From positions 1 to 23,173 of the forward strand of contig CAMDJS010000025.1 in NCBI GenBank assembly GCA_945900685.1: a DNA stretch of 23,173 bases, given 5' to 3'. A program made the position numbers and the translations under genes. The stretch is from Bordetella parapertussis (GTDB lineage: Bacteria; Pseudomonadota; Gammaproteobacteria; Burkholderiales; Burkholderiaceae_C). Under the pieces are notes generated by a model. The model ran no database searches. It was not told the DNA's origin and was given only the letters and a program-made list of their open reading frames with translations. How positions within the stretch are numbered: the first letter of the stretch is position 1; every line of letters begins with the position of its first letter. Below, in pieces: positions 9,041 to 13,862 of the stretch.

Positions 9041-9071
9041 TCCAAACTTAACTTTTTGACGAATCTATTGT

Positions 9072-9110
9072 CCGCCGAGTCGCCAAGTTACCGCTTGGCG
9101 GGGAGGGCGG
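9072..9110 (+). other. GC-rich hairpin in the ilvB-ilvH gap
   Basis: CGCCAAG (9081-9087) pairs with CTTGGCG (9094-9100) across a six-base loop, and an outer CCGCC (9072-9076) can pair with GGCGG (9106-9110). No T-tract follows, so it is not an intrinsic terminator. It ends just upstream of the ilvH Shine-Dalgarno (AGAGGAA, about 9116-9122), so it could stabilise the upstream message or tune ilvH translation. Confidence 0.45.
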
Positions 9111-9131
9111 CGAAAAGAGGAATCCATACAC

Positions 9132-11318: not shown

Positions 11319-12122
11319 ATGAACCAGCAAGAACCCAGCGAACTTAACGAAGAAACGCCGAGCCGCCTGCGAAAAGGCATTTATGTGTTGCCGAATTTAT
11401 TCACTCTGGCGGCATTGTTCGGCGGCTTTTATGCCATCGTGATGGCCATCAACAACCAGTTTGAAGCAGCAGCCATAGGCGTGTTCACTTCTATGGTTTT
11501 GGACAGTTTGGATGGGCGAGTCGCACGAATGACGAACACACAGTCTGCATTCGGCGCGCAGATGGATTCGCTTGCCGATATGGTGTCTTTCGGTGCAGCG
11601 CCAGCATTGATCACTTATGTCTGGGTATTGAATGACCTAGGTCGATGGGGTTGGTTTGCTGCATTTGTTTACTGTGCATGTGCTGCATTGCGTTTGGCGA
11701 GATTCAATGTCAACACAACCGTAGTTGACAAGAGATTTTTTCAAGGTCTGCCGTCTCCTGCGGCAGCGGCTTTTGTGGTGGGTTTTGTTTGGCTTGTGAC
11801 CGTTCTTGAAATTGCCAAATCGGATATGGCTTGGTTATGTTTTGCATTTTGTTTGTATGCGGGCCTGACCATGGTGAGCAATGTTCCTTTCTACAGCTTC
11901 AAAGATTTTCAAATGCGCAAAAGCGTGCCTTTCGCTGTCATTGTTTCCATTGCACTTGTGATCGCTGTCATCAACATCCATCCGCCCATTGTTTTATTCG
12001 CTTTGTTTTTTGCCTATGCGTTCAGTGGCTACGTGGTTTATGCATGGCGACGAGCCAAAGGTTTACCTACCAGTGTCATCAGCACCTCGACGGATGAACC
12101 GGACGAGAAAGGGTTGCATTAA
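11319..12122 (+). CDS. pssA: CDP-diacylglycerol--serine O-phosphatidyltransferase
   Basis: Inner-membrane enzyme making phosphatidylserine from CDP-diacylglycerol and serine, the substrate of Psd. The CDP-alcohol phosphotransferase motif is complete: D62, D65-G66, A69-R70, G79, D83, D87. Several membrane helices follow (about 26-56, 90-106, 130-150, 157-175, 195-215 and 220-240). The 267 residues match the integral-membrane type of PssA, not the peripheral E. coli type. It lies four bases after psd. leuA follows after a 201-base gap containing an attenuator. Confidence 0.95.
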   Translation: MNQQEPSELNEETPSRLRKGIYVLPNLFTLAALFGGFYAIVMAINNQFEAAAIGVFTSMVLDSLDGRVARMTNTQSAFGAQMDSLADMVSFGAAPALITYVWVLNDLGRWGWFAAFVYCACAALRLARFNVNTTVVDKRFFQGLPSPAAAAFVVGFVWLVTVLEIAKSDMAWLCFAFCLYAGLTMVSNVPFYSFKDFQMRKSVPFAVIVSIALVIAVINIHPPIVLFALFFAYAFSGYVVYAWRRAKGLPTSVISTSTDEPDEKGLH

Positions 12123-12151
12123 GAAATCCGTTATTCGGAGACTATTTTCTT

Positions 12152-12157
12152 TATGCT
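12152..12157 (+). promoter_or_regulatory. Tentative -10 element of the leuA leader transcript
   Basis: TATGCT is the best -10-like hexamer upstream of the leader peptide. No convincing -35 accompanies it. If used, the transcript would start near 12165, only about four bases before the leader-peptide ATG. Transcription from the psd-pssA side could also reach the leader. Confidence 0.2.
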
Positions 12158-12168
12158 ACATTCCAAAC

Positions 12169-12222
12169 ATGACCAATTTGCAAAACCTGCTGCTACTAGG
12201 CTTTTTCGGGCCCATACAGTAA
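12169..12222 (+). CDS. leuL: leu operon leader peptide (attenuator peptide)
   Basis: A 17-codon frame reads MTNLQNLLLLGFFGPIQ. It has five Leu codons, four of them in a row at positions 7-10 (CTG CTG CTA CTA); CTA appears sparingly in the neighbouring genes. It sits between pssA and leuA, just before a strong terminator hairpin, which is the arrangement of translation-coupled attenuators of leucine biosynthesis. Ribosome stalling on the Leu run when charged tRNA-Leu is scarce would expose the segment starting at 12207. There is no visible Shine-Dalgarno before the ATG, which is unusual for such a peptide. Too short to be called by length-limited gene finders. Confidence 0.8.
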   Translation: MTNLQNLLLLGFFGPIQ

Positions 12223-12249
12223 CGCTTGCGCGATTATTTTCAAGGCCCG
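12207..12249 (+). promoter_or_regulatory. Putative antiterminator pairing of the leuA attenuator
   Basis: CGGGCC (12207-12212, within the Phe-Gly-Pro codons of the leader peptide) is complementary to GGCCCG (12244-12249), the left arm of the terminator. Pairing of these six G-C bases would prevent the terminator. A ribosome stalled at Leu codons 12187-12198 leaves the first segment free, while one that reaches the stop at 12220-12222 covers it. A weaker early pairing, CCTG (12186-12189) with CGGG (12207-12210), could act as the protector. The geometry is inferred. Confidence 0.6.
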
Positions 12250-12277
12250 TATGCTCCCGCATCGGGCCTTTTGTTTT
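12242..12277 (+). terminator. Intrinsic terminator of the leuA attenuator
   Basis: AAGGCCCG (12242-12249) pairs with CGGGCCTT (12263-12270). The inner ATGC (12251-12254) and GCAT (12259-12262) extend the stem past a one-base bulge to a four-base loop. A T-rich run (TTTTGTTTT, 12269-12277) follows directly. It is the clearest Rho-independent terminator in the window, and lies between the leader peptide and the leuA Shine-Dalgarno. Confidence 0.9.
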
Positions 12278-12323
12278 GGTGGCTTGCGGGACTGGCGGTT
12301 CTTTAATTCACAGGAGTTGATTC

Positions 12324-13862
12324 ATGAACAACCATTTGATAATTTTCGACACCACTTTGCGCGATGGAGAGCAATCTCCGGGTGCGTCCATGACGCGGGA
12401 CGAAAAATTACGTATTGCCAGACAGTTGGAAAGATTGCGAGTGGATGTGATTGAGGCTGGTTTTGCTGCCAGTTCAGAAGGTGATTTCCAGGCCGTTAAA
12501 GCCATTGCCAATGCCATCACCGAGTCCATAGTTTGTTCCTTGTCTCGCGCCAATGATCGGGATATTTCACGTGCCGCTGACGCACTCAAAGGCGCCAAGC
12601 GTTCCCGCATACACACTTTCATTGCAACCTCTGCTTTGCACATGGAGAAAAAACTGCGAATGACGCCAGATCAGGTGTTTGAGCAAGCCAAACAATCTGT
12701 GCGTTTTGCGCGTAACTTGGTGGCTGATGTTGAATTCAGCCCTGAAGATGGCTATCGCAGCGATATGGATTTTTTATGTCGCGTGCTTGAAGCTGTGATT
12801 GACGAAGGCGCAACCACCATCAATGTGCCGGACACAGTGGGTTATGCCGTACCAGAGTTGTACGGTAATTTCATCAAAACATTGCGTGAACGAATTCCCA
12901 ACTCAGACAAAGCCATTTGGTCTGTGCATTGCCACAACGATCTCGGTATGGCCGTTGCCAATTCTCTGGCTGGCGTGCAAATCGGCGGAGCCCGTCAGGT
13001 GGAATGCACCATCAACGGTTTGGGCGAGCGCGCTGGCAACTGCTCTTTAGAAGAAATTGTCATGGCCGTTAAAACGCGCAAAGATTATTTCGGTCTGACT
13101 TTGGGCATCGAGACTCAACATATTTTGGCTGCAAGTCGCATGGTCAGTCAGACCACAGGCTTTGTGGTGCAACCCAACAAGGCCGTGGTGGGAGCAAATG
13201 CATTTGCTCATGCATCCGGCATTCACCAAGATGGTGTGTTGAAGGCGCGTGACACCTATGAAATCATGCGTGCTGAGGATGTAGGTTGGAGCGCAAACAA
13301 AATTGTGCTTGGCAAATTAAGTGGTCGAAATGCCTTCAAACAACGCTTGCAAGATTTGGGTGTGGAGCTTGAGAGCGAAGCTGAAACGAATGCTGCATTT
13401 GCTCGCTTCAAGGAATTGGCTGACCGAAAAAGTGAAATTTTCGATGAAGACATACTTGCCCTCGTGAGCGAAGAAAGTGTTTCACACGAAGACGATGTGT
13501 TTGGTTTTGTGAAACTCTCTCAACGCAGCGAAACAGGCGAGCAACCTTATGCAGCTATTGTGTTCACACATTCTGGAAAAGAAGTGTTTTGTGAATCTGC
13601 CGGCAACGGCCCGGTCGATGCTTCACTCAAAGCGATAGAAAAGCATGTACAAAGTGGTGCCGAAATGGTGTTGTATTCGGTCAATGCCATCAGTGGCTCG
13701 ACAGAAAGCCAAGGTGAGGTCACGGTTCGACTTCAAAACAACGGACGCATCGTCAACGGAGTAGGCTCAGACCCGGATATTGTGGTGGCATCTGCCAAGG
13801 CCTATCTGAGTGCACTCAATAAATTGCAAAGTAAGGCGGAAAGAGTCGCGGCTCAGGGGTGA
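12324..13862 (+). CDS. leuA: 2-isopropylmalate synthase
   Basis: First committed step of leucine synthesis: acetyl-CoA plus 2-oxoisovalerate gives 2-isopropylmalate. The 512 residues match the usual bacterial form. The catalytic TIM barrel (about 5-270) starts [16 protein letters not shown] (R13, D14, E16) and carries the metal ligands H202 and H204 (HCHNDLGMA) and N238 (GLGERAGN). The C-terminal LeuA regulatory domain (about 385-505), which binds leucine for feedback inhibition, is complete. AGGAG at 12312-12316 sets the start. Expression is predicted to depend on the upstream attenuator. Confidence 0.97.

What the first reader, a model, noticed from the sequence alone, without database searches (positions are those of the whole stretch)
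12169..12277. Complete leucine attenuator ahead of leuA in a betaproteobacterial context
Seen: a 17-residue leader peptide with four consecutive Leu codons (two of them CTA), then a strong terminator with T-run, and a six-base G-C complementarity between the end of the peptide frame (12207-12212) and the left terminator arm (12244-12249). This is the logic of E. coli/Salmonella leu attenuation. Positions fit: a ribosome stalled on the Leu run leaves 12207 free, and one at the stop covers it. It implies leuA is uncoupled from the upstream ilv-psd-pssA transcripts and senses charged tRNA-Leu. The peptide lacks a Shine-Dalgarno, so its initiation may itself be unusual.
Basis: partly seen in the sequence, partly recalled or inferred. 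Interest (0 to 1): 0.75.

Follow-up and report, generated by a model that had tools for sequence, protein, structure and literature searches.

The report
Leucine-sensing leader switch before leuA
A short leucine-rich peptide gene and a transcription stop signal in front of leuA very probably form a classical switch that turns on leucine synthesis when leucine runs short; the same switch, with an unusual start signal and often an extra pairing strand, recurs in most of the related genomes sampled.

Summary
In detail: leader ORF 12169-12222 (MTNLQNLLLLGFFGPIQ), terminator 12242-12277, alternative pairing 12207-12212 with 12244-12249. Comparison makes it a real leucine attenuator. A scan of 192 sources gave 160 leaders, 147 distinct, all 147 directly before a leuA. 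CTA is 347 of 663 leader Leu codons against 15 of 2916 in leuA genes. The terminator covaries. Two additions. (1) A conserved extended -10 promoter (TG in 144 of 147) lies 6-8 nt before the start codon in 127 of 147, so the leader mRNA is predicted to be leaderless, explaining the missing Shine-Dalgarno. (2) A strand after the U-tract (12285-12291 here) pairs with the terminator loop and covaries (64 of 96 non-redundant loci; z -14; z -9.5 in 45 further loci). It is made too late for the textbook decision; a pseudoknot is my best structural guess, its role unknown. Limits: the antiterminator core is invariant and so untestable by covariation; no 1:2 helix found; no expression data. No Rfam family matched above weak scores. 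Known kind, new variant.

The parts
12152..12162 (+). Extended -10 promoter-like element TATGCTACATT, no recognisable -35
   Evidence: Sequence; in relatives TG in 144 of 147, information confined to about -18 to -7 and none at -35 in the 144. That it is a promoter is inference.
12169..12169 (+). Predicted transcription start = first base of the leader ATG (leaderless)
   Evidence: 6 nt between hexamer and ATG here; 6-8 nt in 127 of 147 leaders. Not mapped experimentally.
12169..12222 (+). Leader peptide ORF, MTNLQNLLLLGFFGPIQ*
12187..12198 (+). Leucine sensor codons CTG CTG CTA CTA
   Evidence: CTA 347 of 663 leader Leu codons against 15 of 2916 in 80 leuA genes
12207..12212 (+). Strand 2 (CGGGCC), antiterminator left arm
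   Evidence: GGGC starts 12 nt before the stop in 129 of 147; GGG is 143 of 167 leader Gly codons against 298 of 3017 in leuA
12223..12232 (+). Small hairpin CGC-UUGC-GCG right after the stop, inside the antiterminator
   Evidence: fold; hairpin score >= 9 in 62% of 147 spacers against 24% of shuffles
12242..12249 (+). Strand 3 (AAGGCCCG), left arm of terminator T1; GGCCCG also pairs with strand 2
12255..12261 (+). Strand 4' (TCCCGCA): T1 loop and upper right arm, complementary to strand 5
12263..12270 (+). Strand 4 (CGGGCCTT), right arm of terminator T1
12269..12277 (+). U-tract TTTTGTTTT of T1
12285..12291 (+). Strand 5 (TGCGGGA), complementary to strand 4'
   Evidence: 7 bp here, 67 of 5000 shuffles do as well; family-wide covariation
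12312..12316 (+). Shine-Dalgarno-like AGGAG of leuA
   Evidence: Sequence
12324..13862 (+). leuA, 2-isopropylmalate synthase (TIGR00973 type)
   Evidence: 694.7 bits against cut-off 598.7 for TIGR00973; 893.9 against 729 for NF002087
11319..12122 (+). pssA, upstream neighbour; its stop codon ends 46 nt before the leader ATG, no terminator found between
   Evidence: TIGR00473, 127.4 bits against 107

Best explanation
A ribosome-mediated leucine attenuator for leuA. RNA polymerase starts at an extended -10 promoter at or next to the leader ATG (inferred). A ribosome loads on the bare 5' AUG and translates the 17-codon peptide (inferred). If Leu-tRNA, especially the CUA-reading one, is short, the ribosome stalls on the Leu run and leaves strand 2 free to pair with strand 3, so the terminator does not form in time and leuA is transcribed (inferred from geometry). 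If leucine is ample, the ribosome reaches the stop codon, covers strand 2, strands 3 and 4 form the terminator, and transcription stops before leuA. Strand 5, made after the U-tract, pairs with the terminator loop in read-through RNA, perhaps as an H-type pseudoknot on the terminator stem; its role (second-chance termination, pausing, or control of the leaky leuA mRNA) is open. Shown: sequence parts, their conservation, codon bias, terminator covariation, strand-5 covariation. Not shown: transcription start, translation, response to leucine, the actual RNA folds.
For: 147 distinct leaders, each directly upstream of a leuA gene: 92 before the TIGR00973 type, 55 before a second type (the one copy classified, in L017, passes TIGR00970). 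CTA 52% of leader Leu codons against 0.5% in leuA; for CUA sensor codons in the S. typhimurium leu leader see PMC1183508 (passages). GGGC at -12 from the stop in 129 of 147; commonest CTA at -18 from GGGC, 110 of 144. Leader Gly codon GGG 143 of 167 against 298 of 3017. Terminator covariation: A-U to C-G in 11 and G-C to A-U in 8 of 42 sequences. Extended -10 at near-fixed spacing. Model R1 matches 72 of 80 leuA loci at E <= 1e-6, among them 31 of the 39 not used to build it, and 305 of 399 genomes drawn from the family of the Acidovorax genome G001 at E <= 0.001 (matches not all inspected).
Against: The antiterminator core does not vary enough to covary, and the possible inner stem shows no covariation. 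Without a ribosome the terminator is on average 7.8 kcal/mol more stable than the antiterminator at the U-tract (134 leaders), so the switch must be kinetic. No 1:2 helix, so the untranslated state is not obviously 'off'. The -10 hexamer (TA...T, 3-12 nt upstream), at least 3 Leu and the terminator core were conditions of the leader scan, so only TG, spacing, codon choice, GGGC and gene context are free tests. 8 of 80 leuA loci have no match or only a weak one. No expression data. In Streptomyces coelicolor the effects of leuA leader mutations were not consistent with classical attenuation (PMC1262725, passages), so resemblance can mislead.
Confidence: 0.85

Rival explanations
1. The terminator is simply the end signal of the ilvBHC-psd-pssA operon, and leuA has an ordinary promoter; the Leu-rich frame is incidental.
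For: pssA ends 46 nt before the ATG and no terminator was found before T1, so T1 may also serve the upstream transcripts.
Against: The CTA bias, GGG codon and distances are conserved across 147 leaders, also in four loci (L093, L094, L095, L097) where no pssA was found in the upstream 1-1.5 kb held.
Confidence: 0.06
2. The element is a protein- or metabolite-bound structure, or a pseudoknot element comparable to the actinobacterial LEU element, and translation of the peptide is secondary; strand 5 with T1 forms the sensing pseudoknot.
For: Strand 5 covaries with the terminator loop; a rough pseudoknot estimate is more stable than T1 alone in 101 of 101 loci that had been selected for a good strand-5 helix. 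Actinobacterial leuA leaders also carry a Leu run plus a predicted pseudoknot (PMC1262725, passages).
Against: The CTA bias and the ribosome-compatible spacing of sensor codons, strand 2 and stop have no reason in a translation-independent sensor; 32 of 96 non-redundant loci score below 16 for strand 5, and the close relative L001 has only 5 bp.
Confidence: 0.06
3. Translational rather than transcriptional attenuation: the leader controls access to the leuA ribosome-binding site, and T1 is only a structural hairpin.
For: The element lies close to the leuA start in most loci, and strand 5 often 20-60 nt before it (by eye).
Against: A U-rich tract follows T1 in the 42 aligned leaders (at least 5 T in the last nine columns) and the stem covaries; in L051, L059 and L062 about 140 nt separate T1 from leuA, which seems too far to mask the start.
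Confidence: 0.03

Closest known systems
Enterobacterial leu operon attenuator (leuL of S. typhimurium / E. coli; Rfam leu leader family, name recalled)
   Same: Leu run with the rare codon CUA, terminator versus antiterminator, placed before leuA. CUA in S. typhimurium: PMC1183508 (passages); E. coli leader of 28 aa with 4 Leu: PMC6123439 (passages).
   Different: 17 aa, predicted leaderless with extended -10 promoter, no protector helix found, additional strand 5, no leu leader match in Rfam at E <= 10 in the window or E <= 1 in 20 relatives.
Leaderless Leu leader peptides before leuA in Actinobacteria (leuL1 of Streptomyces lividans; LEU element)
   Same: Short leaderless peptide with a Leu run before leuA (PMC8079986, passages); a predicted pseudoknot there (PMC1262725, passages).
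   Different: leuL1 lacks a typical Rho-independent terminator, and the LEU element pairs the Leu run with the leuA Shine-Dalgarno; here there is a strong terminator and the extra strand pairs with the terminator loop.
trpL of Sinorhizobium meliloti (rnTrpL/peTrpL)
   Same: Attenuator RNA that begins with the ATG of the leader peptide (PMC7298713, passages).
   Different: Trp rather than Leu; alphaproteobacterial (recalled); no strand 5 in the passages I saw.
ilvH RNA (RF02993)
   Same: Conserved RNA in the same branched-chain gene cluster; present in this window at 9058-9125.
   Different: Separate element between ilvB and ilvH; not examined further.

Membership tests
Ribosome-mediated (leader peptide) transcription attenuator | Short ORF rich in codons for the amino acid made by the operon | tested here: met
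   ORF, Leu/CTA bias and position in 147 leaders. Translation itself not testable.
Ribosome-mediated (leader peptide) transcription attenuator | Intrinsic terminator between leader ORF and the first gene | tested here: met
   Fold; covariation. Not listed by the mechanical scan.
Ribosome-mediated (leader peptide) transcription attenuator | Mutually exclusive antiterminator whose left arm is exposed by a stalled ribosome and covered at the stop codon | tested here: inconclusive
   Complementarity and spacing conserved; core nearly invariant, inner stem without covariation
Ribosome-mediated (leader peptide) transcription attenuator | Protector 1:2 helix (trp-type leaders; recalled, not a feature of every leader) | tested here: not met
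   z 0.8; 15886 of 20000 permutations as good, N 44
Ribosome-mediated (leader peptide) transcription attenuator | Expression responds to leucine through leader translation | not testable with these tools
   Needs a reporter experiment
Rfam leu leader family (enterobacterial) | Match to the covariance model | tested here: not met
   No such match at E <= 10 in 12000-12400 nor at E <= 1 in 20 relatives
Leaderless mRNA | Transcription start at or next to the start codon, no Shine-Dalgarno | tested here: inconclusive
   Extended -10 element 6-8 nt before the start in 127 of 147, no -35; 5' end not mapped
Actinobacterial LEU element | Stem between the Leu run and the leuA Shine-Dalgarno, plus pseudoknot | not tested
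   Definition from PMC1262725 (passages); strand 5 here pairs with the terminator loop instead
sX5 (RF02224) | Score at or above the gathering threshold of 50 bits | tested here: not met
   25.7 bits at 12241-12303; no match in 20 relatives at E <= 1
Thr_leader (RF00506) | Score at or above the gathering threshold of 55 bits | tested here: not met
   24.0 bits, E 0.64, in one relative of 20, L147 107-214; none in the window

The most novel reading that the evidence does not exclude
A two-stage leucine attenuator: a leaderless Leu leader controls terminator T1, and in RNA that escapes T1 a fifth strand snaps onto the terminator's loop as a pseudoknot (or alternative hairpin), adding a second, conformation-specific control step (extra termination, pausing, or silencing of the leaky leuA mRNA) that textbook attenuators lack.
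Probability: 0.35. Interest if true: 0.7.

Novelty: new variant of a known kind. Interest (0 to 1): 0.5.

Why it matters
It documents a leucine attenuator found before leuA in most sampled genomes of a large betaproteobacterial family (305 of 399; 72 of 80 loci). It had no Rfam match above weak scores and no description in the listings of seven literature searches (several listings were capped, and subscription papers are not held). It sits before two non-orthologous types of 2-isopropylmalate synthase. It suggests attenuation started from a leaderless mRNA, which takes ribosome-binding-site access out of the kinetic race and would give a compact model for ribosome-RNA polymerase coupling at the first codon. 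The strand-5 helix is an unexplained conserved element placed where the standard model has no use for it, and compensatory mutations can test it.

Tried and rejected
Rejected or leading nowhere. (a) sX5 homology: weak match in the window only. (b) Strand 5 as a general second terminator: at least 4 T in the 6 nt after it in 14 of 64 loci against 6.0% of random windows: enriched, but a minority. (c) Strand 5 as a thermodynamic lock of the antiterminated state: the gap moves only from 8.0 to 7.2 kcal/mol in 91 loci with strand 5. In pair probabilities without pseudoknots T1 is above 0.5 in 91 of 91, and the mean probability of the strand-5 helix is 0.01 (there strand 2 was cut at CGGGC and lacked its outer pair; one search restored it). 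(d) Covarying inner antiterminator stem and 1:2 helix: not supported. (e) The window's whole genome is not held, so its tRNA set could not be examined. (f) Literature: ten searches, all used; seven bear on a betaproteobacterial leuA attenuator and their listings show none. A review says that putative leader peptides and terminators occur before branched-chain genes in various Gram-negative species (PMC6123439, passages), so earlier mention is possible, also in non-open papers (e.g. a 2004 survey of proteobacterial attenuators and the 2017 paper behind ilvH RNA; both recalled). Of each paper cited only passages were seen.

Rows dropped. The covariance model used 42 of the 51 leaders (odd lengths, near-duplicates and two more left out). 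The leader scan took 192 sources; 160 met its conditions and 13 were identical to another leader, leaving 147. The 32 sources without one include L098-L103, L130 and L131 (weak model matches), variants that break a condition of the pattern (such as L013, L040, L056, L075) and L006, L010, L029. In some leaders of 11-12 nt spacing an internal start codon was probably taken. Of 21 order-level matches the 15 with E <= 1e-7 are full-length leaders; the six weaker (L098-L103) look unrelated or are terminators only. L130 and L131 were not inspected.

Full report
Observation. The leader ORF is 12169-12222 (17 codons), with CTG CTG CTA CTA at 12187-12198. CGGGCC 12207-12212 is complementary to GGCCCG 12244-12249, the left arm of an intrinsic terminator followed by TTTTGTTTT at 12269-12277. 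The terminator alone folds at -19.8 kcal/mol (0 of 200 shuffles as stable), and RNA ending before the right arm folds into the alternative helix. The mechanical scanner listed neither promoter nor terminator, and the leader as a whole is only mildly more stable than shuffles (z -1.91). The gene behind is leuA (TIGR00973) and the gene before is pssA; the window's LeuA is 95% identical (best segment) to that of a Comamonadaceae MAG (L001).

Conservation. I fetched 80 leuA loci (the best 80 of 586 relatives), searched genomes with a covariance model built from 42 leaders and fetched 60 further stretches. The model matches 72 of the 80 loci at E <= 1e-6, 31 of them among the 39 not used to build it; L056, L068, L070, L075 and L080 match weakly, and L006, L010 (its contig begins 141 nt before leuA) and L029 not at all. 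Of 399 genomes drawn from the family of G001 (the Acidovorax genome of L014), 305 match at E <= 0.001 (not all inspected; searches of this size use stricter filters). In the order 21 of 399 match, 15 of them full-length leaders at E <= 1e-7; in the class 5 of 274, three of them already known. A scan of all 192 sources held gave 160 leaders, 147 distinct. All 147 lie directly before a leuA: 92 before the window's type and 55 before a second type, 25-29% identical to the window's LeuA; the copy in L017 passes the TIGR00970 cut-off. The typical peptide is like MNxxxLALLLxPHGRRR, of 17 or 18 residues in 124 of 147.

Why it is a leucine sensor. CTA, the rarest Leu codon, makes up 347 of 663 Leu codons in leaders but 15 of 2916 in the 80 leuA genes and 5 of 367 in twelve window genes. 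In Salmonella, replacing the CUA codons of the leu leader by CUG reduced sensitivity (as told in PMC1183508, passages). GGGC begins 12 nt before the stop in 129 of 147 leaders; the commonest CTA lies 18 nt before GGGC (110 of 144), the next 12 nt before (89 of 144). With a ribosome edge about 15 nt past the first base of the P-site codon (recalled), a stall on the former leaves strand 2 free, on the latter it just touches it, and a ribosome at the stop covers it. The Gly codon is GGG in 143 of 167 leader cases, although leuA uses GGG in 298 of 3017, a sign of constraint on RNA rather than peptide.

RNA structure. The terminator covaries: A-U to C-G in 11 and G-C to A-U in 8 of 42 sequences, 96.6% of cells paired. 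The antiterminator core CGGGC:GCCCG is present in 134 of 147 leaders on the strand-2 side and cannot vary freely, because strand 3 must pair with two partners; covariation therefore cannot test it. Its outer pair is A-T in 113 of these 134; the window has lost it (T-T) but has an inner C-G pair that only 3 of 134 have, so it keeps six pairs. A possible inner stem does not covary (z -0.9, N 53) and no 1:2 helix is supported (z 0.8, N 44). Without ribosomes the terminator is on average 7.8 kcal/mol more stable than the antiterminator at the U-tract (134 leaders), so the decision must be kinetic. A small hairpin follows the stop codon (62% against 24% of shuffles).

Leaderless start. In relatives the only conserved upstream sequence is TRTGnTACATT, which reads as an extended -10 element without -35 (TG in 144 of 147; information confined to about -18 to -7 in these 144). 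It lies 6, 7 or 8 nt before the start codon in 56, 60 and 11 of 147 leaders, and 9-12 nt in the other 20; in the first set 6, 7 or 8 nt in 31, 19 and 1 of the 51 found among 54. This places the transcription start at or within a few bases of the ATG. The scan required a TA...T hexamer 3-12 nt upstream but neither the TG nor the spacing. Leaderless leader peptides are known in Actinobacteria, including a leuA leader (PMC8079986, passages), and for trpL of S. meliloti (PMC7298713, passages).

A fifth strand. Downstream of the U-tract a strand (window TGCGGGA 12285-12291) is complementary to the terminator's loop and upper right arm (TCCCGCA 12255-12261). In the window alone this is modest evidence (67 of 5000 shuffles do as well), and the close relative L001 has only 5 pairs. 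Across loci it is strong. In the first 54 loci the own downstream sequence scored 15.6 on average against 12.3 for swapped ones, and no permutation of 5000 reached it. In 96 non-redundant loci, 64 reach a score of 16 against 20% of swapped pairs, and duplex energy gives z -14.0. In 45 later-fetched loci without near-duplicates in the first set z is -9.5; because many loci share the same strand, the own partner is the best or tied best in only 6 of these 45. Pairs vary by compensation: at position -5 A-T 32, C-G 25, T-A 4, T-G 3; at -7 C-G 50, T-A 9, A-T 2, T-G 1; at -1 A-T 36, G-C 19, G-T 4 (the 64 loci). The strand begins 10-30 nt after the terminator arm, too late to affect termination at T1. 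What it forms is unsettled. Pseudoknot-free folding gives it almost no probability (mean 0.01) against T1, and a lock of the antiterminated state is not supported. A rough estimate (nearest-neighbour stacks, recalled pseudoknot penalty, no sterics) puts an H-type pseudoknot with the lower terminator stem below the plain hairpin in 101 of 101 loci chosen for having the helix. A T-run after it, as in a second terminator, occurs in 14 of 64. I leave its function open.

Comparison with known systems. It works like the enterobacterial leu attenuator, but Rfam finds no match at its thresholds in the leader; at relaxed thresholds the window gives only weak matches (best sX5, 25.7 bits against 50) and 20 relatives two weak ones, both in L147 (Thr_leader 24 bits against 55, Bp2_287). 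The actinobacterial LEU element also joins a Leu run and a predicted pseudoknot before leuA but pairs differently (PMC1262725, passages), and leuL1 of S. lividans lacks a typical terminator (PMC8079986, passages). Seven searches of the open literature list no betaproteobacterial leuA attenuator (some listings were capped); the premature-terminator survey PMC2965389 does not hold 'leuA' or 'leucine' in its main text. A review states that putative leader peptides occur before branched-chain genes in various Gram-negative species (PMC6123439, passages). Subscription papers were not searchable.

Verdict. Very probably a genuine leucine attenuator, a new lineage and variant of a known kind. The finding's core is right. 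The leaderless start and the fifth strand are the additions worth following.

Noticed in passing
window 9058-9125 (+): ilvH RNA (RF02993), 86.6 bits, in the gap between ilvB and ilvH of the same cluster.
   Followed up: no
L017 1066-2936, and similarly placed matches in L020, L038, L044, L048, L050: In some genomes the attenuator stands about 1.9 kb before the TIGR00973-type leuA, with another gene between; in L017 that gene is a 2-isopropylmalate synthase of the TIGR00970 type. The attenuator stays while the enzyme type differs.
   Followed up: partly
L101 (G281:C75, 43435-46561): A different short frame (MTSTLRIARMICTTPTVAG) behind a similar TTGCTACATT element and before a terminator, ahead of an ORF that reads like a PhzF family protein (by eye); possibly another leaderless leader.
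   Followed up: no
window 12241-12303: Sub-threshold match to Xanthomonas sRNA sX5 (25.7 bits, gathering 50), not seen in 20 relatives.
   Followed up: partly
L093, L094, L095, L097: Leaders probably outside the main family (found in the order search, not in the family draw) share a distinct start (MDT...) and have no pssA in the 1-1.5 kb upstream held.
   Followed up: no
L006 and L029: leuA loci without any model match in the DNA held: apparent losses of the attenuator that could show what replaces it.
   Followed up: no
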